Virus record (IMG/VR): IMGVR_UViG_3300017782_000094
Location: 1 to 33,538 of that record
Reading direction: 5' to 3' (one strand)
Length of the DNA stretch: 33,538 nucleotides
Origin: a virus
Shown piece by piece: positions 3,901 to 13,179 of this stretch. Numbering within the stretch: the first letter of the stretch is position 1; each line of letters opens with the position of its first letter. Under the pieces are notes generated by a model. The model was given only the letters and a program-made list of their open reading frames with translations, was not told the DNA's origin and searched no databases. The position numbers were made by a program, and so were the translations under genes.

Positions 3901-4816
3901 TGCTTTCCCACCTATTGATGAAAAATCAATTGGTATTGCAGAGATGGGTATGAATAATGTTGCAACAGGATATGTTTTTGTGTCGATTCCGACTTCAGTT
4001 AATATACCTTCAGATCAAGGCGGCGGCACATCAACTATTGGGTATATTAGAAAAATAGATTCAAATCCGTCGATGAACGACTTTAAAAGGGTTGCGCCTA
4101 CTCCTGGAGAGGTTTCGAACCCTCCTGGATACAGTACGGGAACTCATTATTCTCAGATACAAGCGAAAATTGTAAGGCTTGAATCTGATAATAAAATAAG
4201 TAGTGCAGATCCGACTAAGGATTTTAACATAGCAACTGTAATGAGGTTTAATTGTCAACCATTATATTTATTTACAGCAATGCATGCTAATGCACGAATA
4301 AATAATATTATTGTTGAAGAATTTTCAGAGACAACAAGTTCAACACATGTTCCTAATTACATAGGTGTTGTCGGGCAAGGTGCTGCGCCAGGATTAGACA
4401 GTGCCGACAACTTTAAAGGATCAATTGAAACGCAGGAAATAAATAGTATATTTGAAACTTCGACAACTACGTTTAATTCAACAGGATTAGAATCATCTAA
4501 TATAGCATTAGTTAAAGATGTTCAGGTGACACCGAACAGAGCCCCTTCTAATTTTGTAAGCAACGATAGGTTATCAGGAATAAAGTTTGATACGCAAACA
4601 GATCTTCCTCTTTCGTTTGCATCGGAAAATTTATTCTCATTCTATATTGGAGCAAATGAAGCGGTGGAATTTGGGTTAGAAAATATATTTAATATTGACC
4701 GACAGTACCTGACTACTGGGTTGTATAACAATGAGGCGCTTTATTTTAAAGCAACTCCAGTTGCTCAAACTGATTCTTGTTCTGTTCAGATGACACTTAC
4801 ATGTAAGGAACAATAA
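941..4816 (+). CDS. Conserved large virion structural protein of marine T4-like phages
   Basis: A 1291-residue protein. The N-terminus (MPRQVKIGFDKVPAPLSKSF, then DIKGTPLTDAAGNPL) and the middle (FRYQPGRVSGFTFG near residue 350, VPRSKWNGDALDGQGPSGY near 465, MYKIEFSWYGAIGAKFYAY near 490, YKYGSSYYIDGGDEG near 565) match a large structural protein I know from cyanophage-like T4 relatives. There it is annotated only as a virion structural or baseplate-associated protein. No catalytic motif is visible; the composition is beta-rich and aromatic, as in baseplate and fibre proteins. The final residues (QYLTTGLYNNEALYF to LTCKEQ) resemble the end of the preceding gene, so both may end in the same assembly domain. 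The ATG directly follows the previous stop, and the stop overlaps the next ATG (TAATG), so these genes are probably translated together. A counterpart of T4 gp7 or gp10 is possible but not demonstrable by eye. Confidence 0.8.
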   Translation: MPRQVKIGFDKVPAPLSKSFHQLVDIKGTPLTDAAGNPLVTEERARDLAFTVAQNSTPAVVGNKGSRETIPVEEVFANESEVSTTLLGVNRAEEQLSLFADVSTYGLDRTNWNYYTVGQGRQPTGWYNRKHPVFKKRGSAEFHEETNEQALYLSAFPTQYQWPDHPNGFNEEFTPDSTFGKYIRFIALGRWLYEIWKDVNPKFAEDNFLNHCLQIVKADKTEFVIDKSTWSLTGDTGSWNNEGAMKNILYGDINGFTAQNAYDQIEKWTLFYFKIRSSTDIYPPYGPIYDVVNNRNVTYLFKTEQPQGPDKRPPFVGEYFRIQEYATQDFTRPGGSPNNWTIGVLESKKTFRYQPGRVSGFTFGLRLKNNPREQSDKIEWGCANDTDQYMLQVTGSQWNIIRRSTQRIPDSVLEDPNGMNLVPPEDFRTPPEDLTPDPVTGELKEPELPPGRDKSQPMYEVRVPRSKWNGDALDGQGPSGYIANLENVTMYKIEFSWYGAIGAKFYAYIPVGNGEARWVLLHTWVIENKLRTPALQAADFKFRYVIFNNNTSNLTEPSFIYKYGSSYYIDGGDEGNITLSGTTSDSRDFQRSVTFDNPRGAVIGLHTKATINNSFGYDPSSQGQIGVTNNKKIYPLTLAGIASTDVRIDIMKTIVSPDGFHGVNSVSLVSGDRFDKDVNLRFDERKEFVFVDSNNPETTVDALTPLDRDAHVIGNGLVNLYVGLQGGQWPAMTRDRAHVQKRRGEYIIQRNSETKVGERVLINSVDPETGRYQFIELADGYDENVFPAKLTSFRSVVASDTPIQSNRFKIHFLNPNKQDNRFPLHSHRASFAFGVTPDKPYEYTENNGQGVPIGYLQFGAAGTGINKRVYPNDPAETSQNYTSPFESGDYFDIDKELFVDWGNNGHYTEVSTLADYIEADNGEGTRFEQDYRINKNEDIPFKNRYGRAGCIEGSVTSVPYEISDISDDVSNAPQGSQADFKVTFASTAFPPIDEKSIGIAEMGMNNVATGYVFVSIPTSVNIPSDQGGGTSTIGYIRKIDSNPSMNDFKRVAPTPGEVSNPPGYSTGTHYSQIQAKIVRLESDNKISSADPTKDFNIATVMRFNCQPLYLFTAMHANARINNIIVEEFSETTSSTHVPNYIGVVGQGAAPGLDSADNFKGSIETQEINSIFETSTTTFNSTGLESSNIALVKDVQVTPNRAPSNFVSNDRLSGIKFDTQTDLPLSFASENLFSFYIGANEAVEFGLENIFNIDRQYLTTGLYNNEALYFKATPVAQTDSCSVQMTLTCKEQ

Positions 4817-7800
4817 TGTCAATTTTTATTGGATTAAATGTCGGCAACTACTTAAGTGACGTTGATAATCAACCTGAAGCACTAAGGAACCTCGGTTTAA
4901 ATAGATTAGATTTAAATCATATTCGTGGCGTACAGGCAGCGGGTATGACGAAAAAATCGCTTCATAATTTTTCAGGGTTAAATGTTGACCAAGAAAAAGT
5001 AAACTTTAGTAACTATATGAGTGCTCTTGTTGTCGCAGGCGAACTGAACAATCTCGGCGACATTAGCGTATCTGCTGATTATAATGTGCGAATAGATGAT
5101 CAACTTAGAGCAGGTGCGATTAAATATAACTATCTTGATTATTCCAGTGGCGTTACAAAGAAAAGCGCCGACATTTCAACAAGTCGTGTATCTTCATGGT
5201 CGCAGATTTTAGACGGTCCTGTAGTCAATGGTCAACCAACATATGGTCCCATTTTTTATGGAGCAGACACATTAGTATCAGGTGATGCAAATAATAATAA
5301 CGAATCAGTTATTGATCTAGAAAATATAGTATTCACAGGCGAACTTACACAAAAAAGATTTCCTGCTGAAATACCAACTCATAGGGTAGACATTGAAATA
5401 AACGGGGAAACAAGAAGTATGTTTACTATGAGAAATATACCTTTCAGGTTTGAAGGTGTATTTAATAGTGCGAATATACAATTAGAAGTTTCAAATATTG
5501 GTCTTGTTCAACCAACTATATTGTTCACTAAAACTACTTTACCTGAAGGTAGTTTGGGTCGTGAATTGGCGATAACTTCACCTGCTGGCGCCACTCAAAA
5601 CACTTATAACTACTCCGCTAGTGGTGCGATTGCTGATCACTTTATCGACATTTATTATAATCCAAATAGTGTTACTACTCTAGATTTTTATGCCGGAAAA
5701 CAAGACACTGGGTCAGGAGCTAACAAAACATTACGAATTAGAGAATTTCCTAATGTTGAAATGAAAAAGATAAATCATATTGATTTGCAGTATAATATTT
5801 TCAGCGAAATGCCTAATTTCTTTAAGATCTCTGCTGGTGAAGTGTCAGGTCATAATAACACTTTAAGATTCATAAATATGTCAGCGAACAATTTATTTGA
5901 ATCTGATTTATCGGGTAATCAACAGCTTAATGACTATGTTCCGTCTACCGTTACTACTCTAGGACTTAACTGTACATTTAGTGACGAAACTCCTATAGAT
6001 ATTAGGCAATTAAAAGTCGGTGGAGGTTCCGGTGGCGCAGTTGAACCATCTGCTCTGACCGCTTTTTATTTTGATGCGTACTCAGGTCGCAACTCAACAA
6101 CAAGAAGGATGTTGGGAACAACCACAAGTGGTAATAATGTAAGTCCTAAAGTAAACGGAAACACTATTACATCATACAACTGTAGACGACATCAATTTAA
6201 ATATTTGCCACATGATGTGACTCACAATTCATTTGATGGGTCAGGTAATTTCGAAACTACAAGTGTTCCGAATGAGTTAGAGAGTTTAGACCTTTACGGA
6301 AACTGGATGCTTGGTCAACTTGATTTAAATGGAAATGTTGTTCCGATTTCTGTACCTGACACAATTTCATCCATTTATGTAGGGTCAAATGATTTAGAAA
6401 CAATAAATGTTTCAGGCAAAACAAATTTAAAATCATATTATCATTTTTATAATAGAGGTTATGCAAATCCGCCGGCCGGCACAAATGGCGGAACCATTAA
6501 TGGATATTTTAGTGGGTGCGATTCATTAGAAAAACTTTCATTCTATGATTCTTATGTTGTCGGCGACATTGGAAGTTTGTTTACAGGTTTGCCTTCATTG
6601 CTTCACGTTAACTTTAATAATACACGATTGAACGGAAGATTCAATAGTGGCAGTTTTGCTGGTACAACAAATATAACAGAGTTTTATGCGAAAGATTGTA
6701 ATTTTGATAGTTCGGCAGGTGCGTTAAACTTTTGGGGTAACAATTTCGAGCAAGTTCAAGCAGAAGCGCCTCCTGGCGGATTAGGTGCTGCTTATGGTGG
6801 AGGATATTATGGCGGGACAATGATTGATTCTGCGCAAAATTCATATTACTTGATTGTTTCACCGAAATCAGCAGAAAACTTTATAGCGAGATATACAGGG
6901 ACAGGTTCAGGCACCCAAGGTCTTGCTCAACCTGGTGATGGTGCGGTAAATACACAACAAGAGTATCAGGGTGATTCTGAGTATGCGGCAGCAGCGTATG
7001 CTGATCAACTTAGTATTCAAGGCACTGACGGAATAACCTATAATGATTGGTATATACCGGCAAGAGATGAACTTGAAATGTTGTATCGTAACTTTAAACC
7101 TACGAATGATGTCAATGATACAACATCTCCAGCGGCAAACGGAAATTCAGTCCCATCATTTAATGGGTTATACGGCACGACAGTTCCAGGCAAAACTAAT
7201 AAATCATTATTCCAAGGTGGAACAGGTTCTCAGGCATTTGAATCAGATCGTAGTAATGATGGCAATCCTGGAATATTTGCAACACAATTGTTGTCAAATT
7301 CTAATTTTAACAATTCAACTCTTGACTTTAACCTTTATAGTGTGTATTCTGATGATGCAACGGTTAACTCTTCGCAAGTTATATTAGGCAATAAACTTGT
7401 TGTTAGTGCAGGAAGTAAAGGTCATGTTGAGCTGATCAAGCATTTCCTTAATCAGAGTCCTCGTACACCAGTTCCTCGAGGTACATATGATGTCGAGGTC
7501 AATTTCGATGAAGTTAAGAAAACAGAGATACCGGCAGGGCAATTTGATGCTAATGCTAATGTTGAATACGAGATCTTAAATTTGGGTTCAATTCCCGCAT
7601 TCAATAATCTTAATTATTCGGCATTTAACCAATCTACTAACACAATTACGATTGGCGCAGGTCACGGATTAGAAAACGGAACAATAGTAAAATTCAACCA
7701 AGACGATATTACAAAAGACGGATTCACGAATCTTGCTGATGATTCGGATTATAAAGTAATGAGTTCGAATAGTGCAGCCGGAACAATTCAACTGCAACAA

Positions 7801-9387
7801 ACAACAGGCGGCCCGGCAATTAATCTTGCGCAATCTGCGGCAATAACAGTTTCGTTAGCAATTACTGGAGCATCTGTAGGAACATATACTTTCACGGGAG
7901 GTGTTGCTGACAGGGCAACAAATGACGTAGGTACAACAAATGTTGATGTTACTCTTTATGAGGGTGACACACTTACAATTTCAAACTCTGAAAGTGCTGC
8001 GCATCCATTACAATACGAAAACAATGACGGTTCAGTATTCTTAACAGAGAGTGGTGGGTCAATTAGTTACTTATTTTCAACAGCAGGAACTTATAGATAC
8101 AGATGTCAAAATCATAGTAGTATGGTCGGCACGATAACGGTATTAGCAAGAAATGGAACATTTGATATTACGACTAATAGGATTGCTAACTGGAATGAAG
8201 CAGGCGCAAATATTGTTAGTGTCGGTTCAACATTTACTGCGACCGGTGAGGGTATAGGTATCTATGGCGGTACTGGTAACCCACGATACGGATCATCAAG
8301 TGATTTAGATAAAGTGTTCGTAATAGCGCAAGAGACATATACTGGACAAGTTCCCGATGGGCCTGATATGCTTGAAATAGAACAGGGGTTGACTTCAGTA
8401 ACATCTGTACAATCAGGAAGATTTGCTGTAGCAGATCACCCGCAACCAGGACTTGTTATCAAATTTATAATAAAATCTAATAATTGTGATTTTAAACTCA
8501 ATAGCGTATCTGTTCGAAACCAAACGGGTGTTTACTGGACATCAACAGAAGGTTCTTCGACCATAACCGGCATTGCTACAGGTATTGCTCAAAGTTTTGT
8601 AAATGGCGAGCAACTTGAAGCAACTAAAACCAGTATGTATAATGTGAGACCTGTCCGAAAGATTACTGTTGCTGCTGCTAATGCGACAGAAAGGCAAGGA
8701 ACATCTGATGTGTTTAAACCTTGTGGCGGATCACTTAAAAACTTTGAGTTAGAAGGTAAAGGTAAGACAGCACCTGCTTCAACCCCAAATATTAGAGGCA
8801 CATTCCCTAATGTGAATTGGTTAAGTGCAATCAGAACATTTAAGGTTGTGAAAACAGAACTTACAGGAACCCTTCCTATATTCAATGGAAGTAACGCATT
8901 ATCACAATTATATTTGAACGATAATAATTTAAGTGGGGCGTTCAGTATTCAAAATGATTCAGTTCAAGATATAAATTGTAGTAATAATGAATTCACAAGC
9001 GCATCTGTGATAATAATACCCAATGCATGGAATTTAAATCTTAGCAATAATAATATTACAAATACCTTCCCAGATTTGTCTGAATCCAGATTATTGTCGA
9101 ATATTAACTTTTCTAATAATGATTTAAAAGATTATCAAATAGGGTCAATTAGTAAATTATCACAGTTAAATAGTTTAAATCTTGCAAACAATGATATAAA
9201 TTTTGCAGGATTTAAACGTCTGTTAGAGGATTTGAAAGAGAATTATGAGGCAGCTGGCAGACCTGGCGTGTCTGTTTCTGTAGAAAGTAACCCGAAAATT
9301 ACACCAGCACGACTTAGCGCAGATTTGCAAGCAACAGATACTTTTGACTTTTTACGAAGCAAGGGTTGGTCAATATCACTTAGTTAG
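4816..9387 (+). CDS. Mosaic LRR / Lcl_C (DUF1566) / cupredoxin tail adhesin
   Basis: A 1523-residue modular protein. Residues 1-45 (FIGLNVGNYLSDVDNQPEAL, NLGLNRLDLNHIRG) form an N-terminal domain shared with two neighbours and are probably a docking adaptor. Residues about 310-640 hold irregular leucine-rich repeats (INHIDLQYN, LRFINMSANNL, LESLDLYGN, LHVNFNNTRLNG). Residues about 660-770 begin a DUF1566/Lcl_C-type domain (GGGYYGG, YYLIVSPK, DWYIPARDELEMLY at 744). It resumes at 1240 with YWTSTEG and ends with NVRPVRKI near 1276. The long insertion between contains a GHGLxxG beta module (935-1002) and an amicyanin-like cupredoxin with H1063, C1097, H1100 and M1103. Residues about 1300-1495 are regular plant-type LRRs (LYLNDNNLSG, LNLSNNNI, LNSLNLANNDI). 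Likely a receptor-binding fibre or adhesin on the virion. The start ATG overlaps the previous stop (TAATG). The fibre role is inferred from domains and location. Confidence 0.8.
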   Translation: MSIFIGLNVGNYLSDVDNQPEALRNLGLNRLDLNHIRGVQAAGMTKKSLHNFSGLNVDQEKVNFSNYMSALVVAGELNNLGDISVSADYNVRIDDQLRAGAIKYNYLDYSSGVTKKSADISTSRVSSWSQILDGPVVNGQPTYGPIFYGADTLVSGDANNNNESVIDLENIVFTGELTQKRFPAEIPTHRVDIEINGETRSMFTMRNIPFRFEGVFNSANIQLEVSNIGLVQPTILFTKTTLPEGSLGRELAITSPAGATQNTYNYSASGAIADHFIDIYYNPNSVTTLDFYAGKQDTGSGANKTLRIREFPNVEMKKINHIDLQYNIFSEMPNFFKISAGEVSGHNNTLRFINMSANNLFESDLSGNQQLNDYVPSTVTTLGLNCTFSDETPIDIRQLKVGGGSGGAVEPSALTAFYFDAYSGRNSTTRRMLGTTTSGNNVSPKVNGNTITSYNCRRHQFKYLPHDVTHNSFDGSGNFETTSVPNELESLDLYGNWMLGQLDLNGNVVPISVPDTISSIYVGSNDLETINVSGKTNLKSYYHFYNRGYANPPAGTNGGTINGYFSGCDSLEKLSFYDSYVVGDIGSLFTGLPSLLHVNFNNTRLNGRFNSGSFAGTTNITEFYAKDCNFDSSAGALNFWGNNFEQVQAEAPPGGLGAAYGGGYYGGTMIDSAQNSYYLIVSPKSAENFIARYTGTGSGTQGLAQPGDGAVNTQQEYQGDSEYAAAAYADQLSIQGTDGITYNDWYIPARDELEMLYRNFKPTNDVNDTTSPAANGNSVPSFNGLYGTTVPGKTNKSLFQGGTGSQAFESDRSNDGNPGIFATQLLSNSNFNNSTLDFNLYSVYSDDATVNSSQVILGNKLVVSAGSKGHVELIKHFLNQSPRTPVPRGTYDVEVNFDEVKKTEIPAGQFDANANVEYEILNLGSIPAFNNLNYSAFNQSTNTITIGAGHGLENGTIVKFNQDDITKDGFTNLADDSDYKVMSSNSAAGTIQLQQTTGGPAINLAQSAAITVSLAITGASVGTYTFTGGVADRATNDVGTTNVDVTLYEGDTLTISNSESAAHPLQYENNDGSVFLTESGGSISYLFSTAGTYRYRCQNHSSMVGTITVLARNGTFDITTNRIANWNEAGANIVSVGSTFTATGEGIGIYGGTGNPRYGSSSDLDKVFVIAQETYTGQVPDGPDMLEIEQGLTSVTSVQSGRFAVADHPQPGLVIKFIIKSNNCDFKLNSVSVRNQTGVYWTSTEGSSTITGIATGIAQSFVNGEQLEATKTSMYNVRPVRKITVAAANATERQGTSDVFKPCGGSLKNFELEGKGKTAPASTPNIRGTFPNVNWLSAIRTFKVVKTELTGTLPIFNGSNALSQLYLNDNNLSGAFSIQNDSVQDINCSNNEFTSASVIIIPNAWNLNLSNNNITNTFPDLSESRLLSNINFSNNDLKDYQIGSISKLSQLNSLNLANNDINFAGFKRLLEDLKENYEAAGRPGVSVSVESNPKITPARLSADLQATDTFDFLRSKGWSISLS
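7618..7821 (+). repeat. GHGLxxG beta module, copy 1 (in LRR adhesin)
   Basis: Residues 935-1002 of the adhesin: TITIGAGHGLENGTIVKF, then a short linker, DYKVMSSNSAAGTIQLQQT and GGPAI. The pattern of a G/A-H-G-h-x2-G strand, a Y-x-V strand and a closing F/I-x-L strand recurs in three other structural proteins of the window. Confidence 0.55.
7930..8148 (+). other. Cupredoxin (plastocyanin/amicyanin-like) domain inside the LRR adhesin
   Basis: Residues about 1039-1111 of the 1523-residue adhesin read as a cupredoxin: VDVTLYEGDTLTISN, then AAHPLQY with H1063, then a G-TYRYRC strand followed by C1097-Q-N-H1100-S-S-M1103-V-G-TITV. The C-x2-H-x2-M-x-G spacing is that of amicyanin (C-T-P-H-P-F-M-R-G), and an upstream histidine completes the usual His-Cys-His-Met type-1 copper set. 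Whether copper is bound in the particle is unknown; the fold could serve only as a beta-sandwich spacer, but all four ligands are kept. Confidence 0.75.
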
Positions 9388-9409: not shown

Positions 9410-10594
9410 ATGGCATTAGGTTTTGCACAAGATAACAATTTGAGAGAGTCCCAGGACTCAAACTCTGCCGCAGGCATCCTTAATAATTTAGGCGGCACGG
9501 GTATTGCTGACGATATTAAACTTTTTGCGGGCAACTTGGGGACAGTACATGAATTAGATTACGGTGCTGATAACTACACCGCTAGTAAAGATGCGTTTCC
9601 GTCAAAGAGCGAGACCTTTTACACAACAGGTGATGCATCATTATTCGTTTACATTGTTATACCTATAACAACATTCGGGCGACAACCTTATTCGAATGAT
9701 ACAATACTGTACACCCTTTCTAACAATAATGAACAACAATATCATATAGTTAAAAACAGCAATGGAATTGACAGATTTCAACTATTTCCTTATAATGTGG
9801 GCACAGGAGTTGTCGGCGAATCACCTAGAAACTGGGGATTCTTCGATGATTTACAAACTAAAAAATTCTTCAGAACTGAACCTGTATTATTTTCAAATTT
9901 AGAAAATTTTTCAAAAGTTAGGGAAAAGTTGAATGACGGTACTGGTGGAATCGAGAATCCTTATTCTCGCAGACTTATTAATTCCGACTCGTCTTTAGAC
10001 AGTTTTGATGAGATTCCGGCAGCTGATAGAAACAAATCTTATGAATTAACTTTTTTGAAGTTTTTTAATGCAGCTGAGTTCACAAGTGAAATTGAGACAG
10101 CAGCAGATAATATGGTGTATAAAAAATCAAGAAATATGGTTTCTTTTACGCAAAATGATTTTACTAGAACGATTGAATTAGGTGGACCTTCGCATATTGT
10201 TAATGATTCAAATACACCATTAACAGACGAAGAAAATGTTCCCGGATTATATATCTTTGGCGGCGGTGTTGCAACTAGAGCATTTAGCGACAAAACAAAT
10301 CCTTGGGTTGAGAATGCAAGTCATACAATGTCTTACACAACTCCTAGTTCTGGTAGCATCACACGAAAAGTAATTAAAACTTCTGATTCTACGCAAAGCG
10401 CACGAGTTTTAAATCTTATATGGGATCAAAATCCTGTATTGATTGCAAGAGGCACAGGCAGTAATCAATCTGTTAGGACAATGTCTTCGATTCCTGTAGG
10501 GACTAACTGGACACATAAGGCTAAAGTTGAAATCAACGGAGAAGATTACTTCTTGTTGCTTACAAACGACCCGACCACTGTAGGCATAACTTAA
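9410..10594 (+). CDS. Virion structural protein with LSDV-type N-terminal adaptor, function unknown
   Basis: A 394-residue protein I do not recognise beyond its N-terminus. Residues 1-45 (GFAQDNNLRESQDSNSAAGI, LNNLGGTGIADDIKLFAGN) align by eye with the N-termini of the LRR adhesin and of the minus-strand gene: an (I/F)-x-L-x4-L-S/R-D start, a short P/N-x2-A-x-L-x-N-L helix, then a DL-x2-I-x-G segment. This suggests the same docking function. The rest is beta-rich and acidic, with no catalytic motif, signal peptide or membrane segment. AAGGT upstream (spacing about 7) supports the ATG. Its stop codon lies in the same four bases (TTAA) as the stop of the convergent minus-strand gene. Probably a small tail-associated or fibre-connecting protein. 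Confidence 0.7.
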   Translation: MALGFAQDNNLRESQDSNSAAGILNNLGGTGIADDIKLFAGNLGTVHELDYGADNYTASKDAFPSKSETFYTTGDASLFVYIVIPITTFGRQPYSNDTILYTLSNNNEQQYHIVKNSNGIDRFQLFPYNVGTGVVGESPRNWGFFDDLQTKKFFRTEPVLFSNLENFSKVREKLNDGTGGIENPYSRRLINSDSSLDSFDEIPAADRNKSYELTFLKFFNAAEFTSEIETAADNMVYKKSRNMVSFTQNDFTRTIELGGPSHIVNDSNTPLTDEENVPGLYIFGGGVATRAFSDKTNPWVENASHTMSYTTPSSGSITRKVIKTSDSTQSARVLNLIWDQNPVLIARGTGSNQSVRTMSSIPVGTNWTHKAKVEINGEDYFLLLTNDPTTVGIT

Positions 10595-13179
10595 GAATCA
10601 AATAATGCCCAATATTTTGTGCCGCCGGGAGTTTTAAGCAATAGCCCGCCATTAGCAGTATCATCATTGTCTGATGTTGATTCTGTTATCTCTGTCGATG
10701 TAGCATTGTTAAACTTCACACCCGTTATCGAGAAATCACCGCCTACTGATAATGCAGGGAATCCGGCACCTCCTGTGGTCGTTTCTAATCCTGTATCTGT
10801 ACCTGCAAATGGTGGTGCTGTATTCAAAGGCATCACACACAATTCTTTGTCGCTTGCTGTACCTACAGCACCTGACCCCGGATCATTGAGTGCAAATATA
10901 ACAGTTCTTGCTGCTGGAATTGTAGCATAAAGATTAGAAGTTAATGTCACAGTATTTGTTGAAGAATTAACGCCGCCGATTGCAACTTGTACTGAATTAC
11001 CAGCAGCCGCATCCGCTTGTACCCCATTAAAATATTGTACGTACATACCGTCACTGATTCCTTCAACATTTAATAATTTGAGTTGATTTTGACCAGAAGA
11101 GTTCACGCTTGTGCCGCCAGGATCTGCAACTTCTTTACCTATAACGCCAACACATTGTGCCGCTGTTGATAAGTCAGTTAGTCCCCTATGCGAAAAAATT
11201 ATACTATATGAATTTTCGTATATTGTTCTGTTTGTTGATGTTATCGGTATAGAACCTATCTCTAAGTCACCTGATGAAGGCGATTTGTTTAATGTAGTAA
11301 TTCTATCAAATACTACAGGTTCTGCTCCTGTTGCGGTAGTTGGACGCAAGTTCAACACCAAATCACCCACAATAACATCATCTATAAAGAAATCTGTATC
11401 AGATTTGTTTGCAGCACTGGTATCTTGATTGTTGTTGTTGCGCATCTTATTCAACTCAGAAACATATGACCCAGAATTTGCTGTCAATTCAACATTTTTC
11501 TGAGTATATATTCCTGCGACACCCACAGATTTGATCACATAATAAGCAAATGTCACGCCTAATGGATCTGAACCAGCATTGTACAACGTCATTATCGCAG
11601 AAATACTGTCTACCGCATTATTATATCTTTTGTAAGGGTCTACATACACATCTGCTCCGCCTGCATATACATTTACAGATGATATTTGCAAATAAAAATG
11701 ATCATTATCTCCTGCAGGCGGCGCACCAGAAAATAACAAATAATCTCCTGCTTTGAGTTTGAGACCTGTGTTATAGTCTGCCGTGAACACATTACCGCCT
11801 CGATATGTTAAAGAGACATCATCTATTACGCCAGCAGTATCGAATCTTGACACATCTTTCACCGCCGAATGCACGGGTTCATACCTAACATAAACAGGTT
11901 TCTCGTTTTCTATAGGATCATTAATATGCTTGTTTGTAGCATTTACAATATTTCTTGCAAAATGTTCATATGTATAATTTGGAGTCGCTTGATCTATTCC
12001 GCCTCGTTTTTCTTTATACCATAGTGTATACGGCGTGGATATATCGCCAACGCCTGCTCTATTGAGACCATATTCCATATCAAATCTAAACCCGAAAGGA
12101 CTATATCTAGAAAATGATTTTGGTGTCGCAAAACTGTCTGGTTTCGGATACCATGTGGTTATTCTTATTCTCTGCGTTTCACCGGGCATTACTCTTTCTG
12201 TCCATGAAGTTAGAGTTTCAGTTATCATGTCTGATCCAATATTCCAACTAAAATATAATGTTGTTCCTACCGATGCTACATCAGAAACAATATCTCCTGC
12301 ACCAGTTAAGGGTTCAAACCTCACGATCATTGCAGTACCTGTTACATCTGGATCATGGCTAGATACTTGGTGTGTCGGTGTCCCGCCAGAGGTAGTTGAT
12401 ATTTTTAACCCATTCCAGCCATATTTATTCCATGTTTCTATAGGAACAACAAACTGATTTGCGTTACCCGTATGCCCCGTTGAGGTTAATGGGATTTCTT
12501 CTGCGACTGCCTGTTTAACTGTCTCCCATGAAGAAGTATTTTCATTGTATTTCTCCATATGGAAAAATGAATTAATGCCAAGGCGAACATATCTATTATT
12601 AGAGTTTGATAACCACCCATCCCACATAATGCCGCCATATTGATTAGGAAATGATGGATGAAACCCGTTTGAGAACCCAAAAAGTCCGTCAATCCAATAA
12701 TCCTGTGATGTTATGTTGCCTTCATATGCAGTATCGAAAACATCGGTATGATCTATTGTGGCGGTAGGTGATAATTGTGCAGCATTTGATGTTAAAGCAT
12801 CTTCTGGAAAAATTGTTGCTATCGGACCCATTCCGCCTCTAGCATATGGAGGCGATCCCACAACAATTTGATCGTTTATCAATTGATCAATCATTCTTGT
12901 TCTTGGTTCAACATCAACAGGAACGCCAACTAATACATTATTATTTTCATCTAATGATAATGGAGTAAATGTTTTAACTAGTTGTGTTATTTCTGCTAAA
13001 TCTTGAGCCCAAACATCAGTTTGGTTTAATCCATTAATAACTTGCAGGTCGCCAGGAGAAAAGGGTTGATTTGGAACTAAGTCGTCCAGAATATTTGCTA
13101 AACCTGCGGAAGGATCCGGCACATCAGATAAACTTCTATCTGCTCGCAAACCAATTCTTATATATTTAGATACTGACAT
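10591..13179 (-). CDS. Large virion structural protein on the minus strand (LSDV adaptor, PA14-like region)
   Basis: An 862-residue protein and the only long minus-strand gene in the window. The N-terminus (YIRIGLRADRSLSDVPDPSA, then GLANILDDLV and PGDLQVINGL) is the clearest form of the adaptor shared with the two plus-strand genes before it. It matches the start of a structural protein family of cyanophage-like T4 relatives (RSLSDVPNPTTALNNLL, from memory). Residues about 150-300 (YEGNITSQDYWIDGLFGFSN, YGGIMWDGWLS, RYVRLGINSFFHMEKY) look like a PA14-type beta-sandwich, often carbohydrate-binding. The C-terminus (GGLLLKTPGGTKYWALFDS) is fibre-like. Start: GAGG on the minus strand at 13186-13189, 6 bases before the ATG. 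A late promoter motif lies at 13214-13221. The gene converges on the 9410-10594 gene and overlaps it by the TTAA that holds both stops. Confidence 0.82.
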   Translation of the reverse strand: MSVSKYIRIGLRADRSLSDVPDPSAGLANILDDLVPNQPFSPGDLQVINGLNQTDVWAQDLAEITQLVKTFTPLSLDENNNVLVGVPVDVEPRTRMIDQLINDQIVVGSPPYARGGMGPIATIFPEDALTSNAAQLSPTATIDHTDVFDTAYEGNITSQDYWIDGLFGFSNGFHPSFPNQYGGIMWDGWLSNSNNRYVRLGINSFFHMEKYNENTSSWETVKQAVAEEIPLTSTGHTGNANQFVVPIETWNKYGWNGLKISTTSGGTPTHQVSSHDPDVTGTAMIVRFEPLTGAGDIVSDVASVGTTLYFSWNIGSDMITETLTSWTERVMPGETQRIRITTWYPKPDSFATPKSFSRYSPFGFRFDMEYGLNRAGVGDISTPYTLWYKEKRGGIDQATPNYTYEHFARNIVNATNKHINDPIENEKPVYVRYEPVHSAVKDVSRFDTAGVIDDVSLTYRGGNVFTADYNTGLKLKAGDYLLFSGAPPAGDNDHFYLQISSVNVYAGGADVYVDPYKRYNNAVDSISAIMTLYNAGSDPLGVTFAYYVIKSVGVAGIYTQKNVELTANSGSYVSELNKMRNNNNQDTSAANKSDTDFFIDDVIVGDLVLNLRPTTATGAEPVVFDRITTLNKSPSSGDLEIGSIPITSTNRTIYENSYSIIFSHRGLTDLSTAAQCVGVIGKEVADPGGTSVNSSGQNQLKLLNVEGISDGMYVQYFNGVQADAAAGNSVQVAIGGVNSSTNTVTLTSNLYATIPAARTVIFALNDPGSGAVGTASDKELCVMPLNTAPPFAGTDTGLETTTGGAGFPALSVGGDFSITGVKFNNATSTEITESTSDNDDTANGGLLLKTPGGTKYWALFDS

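What the first reader, a model, noticed from the sequence alone, without database searches (positions are those of the whole stretch)
7930..8148. Cupredoxin domain with an intact type-1 copper site inside a phage adhesin
Residues H1063, C1097, H1100 and M1103 reproduce the four ligands of blue copper proteins, with amicyanin-type C-x2-H-x2-M-x-G spacing and the surrounding Greek-key strand pattern. The domain lies within a 1523-residue LRR/Lcl adhesin and has no partner electron-transfer gene nearby. It could bind copper on the virion surface, stabilise the fibre, sense the host surface or cell redox state, or be a plain beta-sandwich. Ligand retention argues against a purely structural use.
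Basis: partly seen in the sequence, partly recalled or inferred. Interest (0 to 1): 0.78.

Follow-up and report, generated by a model that had tools for sequence, protein, structure and literature searches.

The report
Copper-protein domain in phage tail fibre
A tail-fibre protein of a marine T4-like phage carries a small copper-protein (cupredoxin) domain with all four metal-holding residues in place; relatives in baseplate and tail proteins of many sequenced cyanobacterial T4-like phages keep those same residues almost without exception, so these virus particles probably carry a bound metal ion, most likely copper, whose role is unknown.

Summary
The 1523-aa ORF at 4816-9387 (+) contains a complete cupredoxin domain (aa ~1011-1111, window 7846-8148). 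H1063, C1097, H1100 and M1103 align with cupredoxin copper ligands. AlphaFold2 gives a confident beta-sandwich (pLDDT 88). All 50 listed PDB structural matches are cupredoxins or cupredoxin-fold copper proteins. The domain sits inside a ~450-residue insertion that splits an Lcl_C domain.

It is not a singleton. The same domain ends the gp9-like baseplate/tail-fibre connector of many cyanomyoviruses: 336 phage records, 335 of them cyanophage or marine. It also occurs in tail spikes, fibres and subtilisin-like proteins. 138 of 139 distinct full-length domains keep His, Cys, His and Met. In a test that selected gp9 by its N-terminus only, 46 of 46 complete domains keep them, although loop spacing varies. 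Of the 138, 130 have a single Cys, which argues against a disulfide.

The conserved, metal-site-like ligand set is well supported. Copper itself, loading and function were not tested. Best explanation: a metal-loaded (most likely copper) display or attachment module of marine tail machines. Zinc filling, a redox or light switch, or a metal lure for host receptors are not excluded. I found no description of this in the open literature I searched.

The parts
4816..9387 (+). 1523-aa tail-fibre-like protein (LRR segments, split Lcl_C domain, cupredoxin domain)
   Evidence: Pfam Lcl_C and LRR_8, PHROG matches; lies upstream of T4-like gp13-gp14-gp15-gp16-gp17
7846..8148 (+). cupredoxin domain, aa 1011-1111
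   Evidence: PF00127 above cut-off when isolated, masked-ligand profile E 6.5e-17, AlphaFold2 pLDDT 88.3 / pTM 0.81 on aa 1008-1115, Foldseek: all 50 listed PDB matches cupredoxins or cupredoxin-fold copper proteins
8002..8004 (+). H1063, first histidine ligand, followed by Pro
   Evidence: aligns with the plastocyanin ligand His (profile alignment to 1b3i) and with the His of 9cck and 5fc9; HP motif in 137 of 138 intact relatives
8104..8106 (+). C1097, cysteine ligand, the only Cys of the domain
   Evidence: 130 of 138 intact relatives have exactly one Cys in the domain
8113..8115 (+). H1100, second histidine ligand
   Evidence: conserved in relatives
8122..8124 (+). M1103, axial methionine ligand
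   Evidence: conserved in relatives
6982..7149 (+). first part of an Lcl_C (DUF1566-type) domain, aa 723-778
   Evidence: Pfam PF07603 positions 25-78 of 117
8515..8658 (+). second part of the same Lcl_C domain, aa 1234-1281, beyond the insertion that carries the cupredoxin
   Evidence: PF07603 positions 73-117; pieces score 19.0 and 15.5 bits apart, 33.2 bits joined (cut-off 34.9)
9031..9198 (+). leucine-rich repeat stretch, aa 1406-1461
   Evidence: PF13855 LRR_8, E 0.01, below cut-off

Best explanation
This is a genuine cupredoxin domain, used as a modular display domain in the tail machinery of marine T4-like phages. Its H-C-H-M set forms a mononuclear metal site that is kept by selection and most likely holds copper (type-1-like). 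Proposed working: the virion protein is assembled in the host cytosol with the site empty or holding another metal. It takes up copper around lysis or in seawater. The filled site locks the two loops carrying His and Cys-His-Met into a rigid tip, which strengthens the domain and forms a surface for contact with the host or with a neighbouring tail protein. In the window protein the domain sits in a large insertion of an Lcl_C domain, probably on the host-facing part of the fibre. In many cyanomyoviruses the same domain caps the gp9-like baseplate/tail-fibre connector. Shown here: fold prediction, sequence homology, ligand conservation, virion-gene context, distribution. Inferred: metal identity, time of loading, rigid-tip contact function, host-facing location.
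For: Pfam Copper-bind above cut-off for the isolated domain. Profile search of the PDB finds plastocyanin, amicyanin, pseudoazurin, rusticyanin and CuNIR; in the printed plastocyanin alignment the four ligands align. AlphaFold2 pLDDT 88.3, pTM 0.81, with His just before one strand and Cys-His-Met at the end of a strand and in the last loop, as in cupredoxins. All 50 listed PDB matches are cupredoxins or cupredoxin-fold copper proteins; among viral models the best are cyanophage tail fibre, gp9 connector and S8-domain proteins. Ligands are among the most conserved columns in a profile built with those columns masked (45 sequences below 80% identity, mean pairwise identity 0.36). Selected by the gp9 N-terminus only: 46 of 46 complete domains keep all four ligands; they are 4 of 13 invariant columns among ~101 (chance about 2e-4, my arithmetic), and Cys-His and His-Met spacing varies (2 or 4, 2 or 3) while ligands stay. 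The one full-length loss (L040 copy 2, with a partial copy 3) loses Cys, His and Met together beside an intact copy, so the sequence can persist without the ligands. One Cys per domain in 130 of 138. Position in annotated baseplate, fibre and tail-spike genes.
Against: No metal measurement and no coordinates: ligand distances were not measured. TM-scores to solved cupredoxins are moderate (0.42-0.60 over the query, rmsd mostly 4-6 A). The residue after the first His is Pro, where amicyanin has Asn54, which tunes the site (PMC12723479), so this is not a copy of a known site. Bacterial cytosol holds almost no free copper (general knowledge), so loading is a real problem for the hypothesis. The contact function is not tested by anything here.
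Confidence: 0.5

Rival explanations
1. The site is a structural metal site that in the virion is filled with zinc (or another cytosolic metal) rather than copper; it stabilises the domain and has no redox role.
For: Virion proteins assemble in the cytosol. Cupredoxin sites readily take zinc: Zn-azurin arises as a by-product of expression in E. coli (PMC12071310). Ligand conservation is equally expected.
Against: Met is kept in 138 of 139 domains, yet Met121 does not coordinate zinc in Zn-azurin (PMC12071310); an axial Met conserved this strictly fits copper better.
Confidence: 0.17
2. Redox or light switch: Cu(I)/Cu(II) change, or light absorbed by the Cys-Cu(II) centre, alters the fibre or baseplate and gates adsorption.
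For: Amicyanin absorbs at 595 nm (PMC12723479). The domain is in the gp9-like connector of many cyanomyoviruses and absent by this search from enterobacterial T4-like phages. Adsorption of several marine cyanomyoviruses is light-dependent (PMC2984593).
Against: Also present in Pelagibacter, Methylophilales and lake Actinomycetia phages, whose hosts are not oxygenic phototrophs. No electron partner gene seen. The link to light is a coincidence of distribution only.
Confidence: 0.1
3. Metal lure: the bound copper is presented to a host metal-uptake receptor, as proposed for iron in tail fibres (Trojan-horse hypothesis).
For: Iron-binding HxH motifs in marine phage fibres and the hypothesis exist (PMC11705849). 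The domain is largely confined to aquatic, mostly marine phages.
Against: In a cupredoxin fold the metal is normally buried (general knowledge). No copper receptor of these hosts is known to me to serve as a phage receptor.
Confidence: 0.08
4. Plain beta-sandwich spacer; the ligand residues are leftovers of descent or hold the fold by packing.
For: Phage fibres use many Ig-like spacers (general knowledge); L040 shows the sequence can persist without Cys, His and Met.
Against: 138 of 139 domains keep all four ligands at a mean pairwise identity near 0.36, loop lengths vary around them, and loss is of all three C-terminal ligands at once.
Confidence: 0.07

Closest known systems
Amicyanin / Copper-bind family (Pfam PF00127; PDB 1aac, 2qdv)
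   Same: Cupredoxin fold; ligands His, Cys-x2-His-x2-Met (amicyanin H53, C92, H95, M98; PMC12723479); last strand and loop GTYRYRCQNHSSMVGTITV close to amicyanin GTYDYHCTPHPFMRGKVVV
   Different: Domain of a large virion protein, not a free periplasmic electron carrier; Pro instead of Asn after the first His; no methylamine dehydrogenase or cytochrome partner in the window; about 20-30% identity in structural alignments
Cupredoxin domains of multidomain copper enzymes (PDB 9cck, 2dv6, 6hbe)
   Same: Best sequence match (9cck C-terminal domain, E 3e-5) and best fold matches (2dv6, 6tfd); C-x2-H-x2-M loop in 9cck
   Different: No further copper or oxidase domains detected in the phage protein
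C-terminal domain of cyanomyovirus gp9-like baseplate wedge / tail-fibre connector (PHROG 677, C-terminal part)
   Same: Same domain by sequence (E 4e-5) with the same four ligands
   Different: There it ends a ~410-500 aa connector; in the window it is internal to a 1523-aa LRR/Lcl_C fibre; 22-31% identity
P-SSM2 tail spike and P-HM1/P-HM2/MED4-213 large ORF upstream of gp13
   Same: Same domain, ligands intact, up to about 40% identity; also among the best viral structural matches
   Different: Different parent proteins; two copies per protein
Phage-encoded plastocyanin PetE (PHROG 515)
   Same: Cupredoxin fold; weak match (E 0.004)
   Different: Stand-alone auxiliary metabolic protein of ~107 aa thought to serve photosynthesis (PMC2984593), not a virion part

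Membership tests
Cupredoxin superfamily | Greek-key beta-sandwich of about 7-8 strands | tested here: met
   AlphaFold2 pLDDT 88.3, nine strands; all 50 listed PDB matches cupredoxins or cupredoxin-fold copper proteins, E down to 8e-6
Cupredoxin superfamily | significant sequence match to the curated family | tested here: met
   PF00127 23.1 bits vs cut-off 21.2 for the isolated domain; 22.5 bits, over the cut-off, in a separate search; 18.2 bits, below cut-off, when the whole protein is scanned
Type-1 copper site | two His, one Cys, one Met at positions aligned with known ligands | tested here: met
   conserved in 138 of 139 relatives
Type-1 copper site | ligands within bonding distance of one point | tested here: inconclusive
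   only topology and alignment available; no coordinates returned
Type-1 copper site | bound copper with ~600 nm band / type-1 EPR | not testable with these tools
   needs purified protein
Amicyanin | C-x2-H-x2-M ligand loop | tested here: met
   window and 128 of 138 intact relatives; 4/2 or 2/3 spacing in the rest
Amicyanin | Asn after the first His ligand | tested here: not met
   Pro in the window; HP in 137 of 138 intact relatives (amicyanin Asn54 from PMC12723479)
Amicyanin | periplasmic electron carrier with methylamine dehydrogenase partner | tested here: not met
   part of a phage structural gene module, no such partner in the window
Lcl_C / DUF1566 domain | whole-domain profile match | tested here: inconclusive
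   two parts about 455 residues apart; joined score 33.2 vs cut-off 34.9
T4-like virion protein | gene in the tail/neck module | tested here: met
   gp13, gp14, gp15, gp16, gp17 homologues follow downstream on the same strand

The most novel reading that the evidence does not exclude
Marine T4-like phages as a group, including many cyanomyoviruses, carry redox-active type-1 copper centres in their baseplate and fibre proteins, and the state of the metal (redox state or light-driven reduction) gates adsorption, which would explain the light-dependent adsorption reported for several marine cyanomyoviruses.
Probability: 0.07. Interest if true: 0.93.

Novelty: new variant of a known kind. Interest (0 to 1): 0.62.

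Why it matters
If the site holds copper, the virions of a large share of cyanomyoviruses are copper proteins with perhaps many centres each. That would bear on how these phages attach, on why some adsorb only in light, and on trace-metal budgets of viruses in the sea, where the discussion I found concerns iron. It is testable with standard methods on cultured phages.

Tried and rejected
Close relatives of the whole 1523-aa protein in IMG/VR: none; in phages only a 38% match to the Lcl_C part in one Pseudomonas phage. Nucleotide relatives of window 9001-33538 in phages: none. Cellular relatives of the window domain: none with its own sequence; a P-HM1 query found a marine Bacteroidetes lipoprotein and contigs that look viral. 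Plasmids: none. Disulfide explanation of the Cys rejected: one Cys per domain in 130 of 138. Selection bias: the first seeds were picked with a motif pattern and some scans used a YYxCxxH stretch, so the ligand counts are partly biased; the gp9 test was designed to avoid this. A model of a whole gp9 was poor outside the C-terminal cupredoxin (pLDDT 57; C-terminal domain about 73-89 per block), so it says nothing on the baseplate part. Literature: no paper found linking cupredoxins to phage tails, open-licence papers only.

Full report
WHAT WAS CHECKED. The window is one IMG/VR virus record of exactly 33,538 bases. The ORF at 4816-9387 (+) gives 1523 aa. The isolated domain passes the Pfam cut-off for Copper-bind (PF00127, 23.1 vs 21.2 bits), though the full protein does not (18.2 bits). 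By sequence alone the PDB gives the C-terminal cupredoxin of a Nitrosopumilus copper oxidase (9cck, E 3e-5), then a cupredoxin from Nitrosopumilus (5fc9, E 0.002) and amicyanins (0.009-0.1). With a profile of 38 viral domains (A2) the matches are CuNIR, plastocyanin, amicyanin, pseudoazurin and rusticyanin; in the printed alignment to plastocyanin 1b3i the His, Cys, His and Met columns fall on the copper ligands. The motif does not arise in 20,000 shuffles of the protein and the domain is the only one in the window.

FOLD. AlphaFold2 on aa 1008-1115 with 38 sequences: mean pLDDT 88.3, pTM 0.81, nine strands. The first His (model residue 56) precedes a strand, the Cys (90) ends a strand, and His and Met (93, 96) lie in the loop before the last strand, as in cupredoxins. 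All 50 listed PDB matches are cupredoxins or cupredoxin-fold copper proteins, E from 8e-6, TM 0.42-0.60 over the query. In a library of viral models the best matches are cyanophage proteins, mostly at TM 0.7-0.79: P-SSM5, P-SSM2 'proximal tail fiber', MED4-213, S8/S53 proteins of ACG-2014e and 2014h, and gp9 connectors of S-H34 and S-RIM14.

RELATIVES AND LIGAND CONSERVATION. The domain recurs in cyanomyovirus virion proteins: gp9-like connectors of S-WAM1, syn9, P-TIM40, S-IOM18, S-B64, P-RSM6, P-RSM4, S-SZBM1; the P-SSM2 tail spike; the 5.5 kb ORF upstream of gp13 in P-HM1, P-HM2 and MED4-213; S-CAM4; a subtilisin-like protein of S-H9-1; a tail fibre of Sf-CH8. With the four ligand columns masked to X the profile finds the same set. 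Iterated over 132 loci it gave 105 distinct domains; His, Cys, His, Met were kept in 104, 103, 103 and 101, and in a set below 80% identity (45 rows, mean pairwise identity 0.36, minimum 0.14) the ligand columns rank with a few Gly, Pro and Tyr as the most conserved. Counting full-length domains with loop-length tolerance: 138 of 139 intact.

A LESS BIASED TEST. Early seeds had been picked with a motif pattern, so I selected gp9 by its N-terminal 386 residues, which exclude the cupredoxin. 52 ORFs were collected; 47 carry the domain and 46 of these are complete. All 46 keep His, Cys, His, Met. Spacing varies: C-x2-H-x2-M in 36, C-x4-H-x2-M in 9, C-x2-H-x3-M in 1. The 27 distinct domains share 13 invariant columns, and all four ligands are among them. 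Ligands that stay while the loop between them changes length are the mark of selection on the site. The sole full-length exception, a second copy in L040, has lost Cys, His and Met together beside an intact first copy; a partial third copy lacks them too. 130 of 138 intact domains have one Cys, so a disulfide is not the reason for its conservation.

WHERE IT OCCURS. The gp9-type domain matches 336 of 50,697 phage records: 335 cyanophage or marine-virus records and one lake Actinomycetia phage. By comparison, the window's gp15 matches 2,373 phage records including 622 Escherichia, 315 Klebsiella and 190 Salmonella phages, and no such phage is among the cupredoxin matches. A second subfamily extends to Methylophilales and Pelagibacter phages, and representatives (Melnitz, Mosig, DSL-LC01) keep the ligands. 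So it is aquatic, mostly marine, and not confined to phages of photosynthetic hosts. Outside viruses I found a marine Bacteroidetes lipoprotein with LRR-like repeats and a C-terminal copy, 57-58% identical to the P-HM1 domain.

ANATOMY OF THE WINDOW PROTEIN. Lcl_C matches aa 723-778 (positions 25-78) and aa 1234-1281 (positions 73-117). Apart they score 19.0 and 15.5 bits, joined 33.2 (cut-off 34.9). The cupredoxin thus lies within a ~450-residue insertion in an Lcl_C domain, and an LRR stretch follows. The genes downstream are T4-like gp13, gp14, gp15, gp16 and gp17. The host is unknown; gp15 is 34-50% identical to T4-like phages of several hosts.

HOW IT MOST LIKELY WORKS. Shown: homology, predicted fold, ligand retention, virion-gene context. 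Inferred: the site binds one metal ion, most likely copper; it is loaded after assembly; the loaded site rigidifies the tip of the domain that contacts the host or a neighbouring tail protein. The axial Met argues for copper over zinc, since in Zn-azurin Met121 no longer coordinates (PMC12071310), but zinc in cytosol-assembled particles is a real rival. Pro after the first His, in place of amicyanin's Asn54 (PMC12723479), marks a distinct variant; from memory, multicopper oxidases have His-Pro at their type-1 site, a resemblance I did not test. The light-dependent adsorption of several marine cyanomyoviruses (PMC2984593) makes a redox or light switch worth testing but nothing here supports it directly.

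NOVELTY. Cupredoxins are a known kind, and phage plastocyanin (petE) is known as a metabolic gene (PMC3037559). Cupredoxin domains as conserved parts of tail machines were not found in the open literature searched; subscription papers were not searchable, so prior mention cannot be excluded.

Noticed in passing
window 6982-8658: Lcl_C domain split by an insertion of about 450 residues that carries the cupredoxin and possible jelly-roll-like segments.
   Followed up: partly
L017 frame +0, ORF starting at codon 737 (661 aa); similar ORF in L009: The ORF after gp9, annotated baseplate wedge subunit, has a second HPMQ...YYYCKNHRYM motif followed by HSKILGMSYDGYPIYGPYGY, which resembles a YHYH domain; a second possible metal site in cyanophage baseplates.
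   Followed up: no
L188-L190 (marine Bacteroidetes genomes): Predicted lipoprotein with LRR-like repeats and a C-terminal cupredoxin domain 57-58% identical to the P-HM1 phage domain; possible cellular source or recipient of the module.
   Followed up: partly
L040, L187, L013 (S-H9-1): Cupredoxin domains fused to or annotated within subtilisin-like proteins in phage structural regions.
   Followed up: no
L040 ORF of 1040 aa, aa 193-490: Tandem cupredoxin copies, one intact and two that lost Cys, His and Met together.
   Followed up: yes
L187 (contig binned as Gammaproteobacteria): Contig looks viral (subtilisin-like ORF with two cupredoxins next to a repetitive fibre-like ORF); probably misbinned.
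   Followed up: no
window 10591-13179 (-): 862-aa ORF on the opposite strand with an N-terminus resembling that of the fibre at 4816-9387 by eye (not detected by blastp at E 1e-3) and no family match.
   Followed up: no
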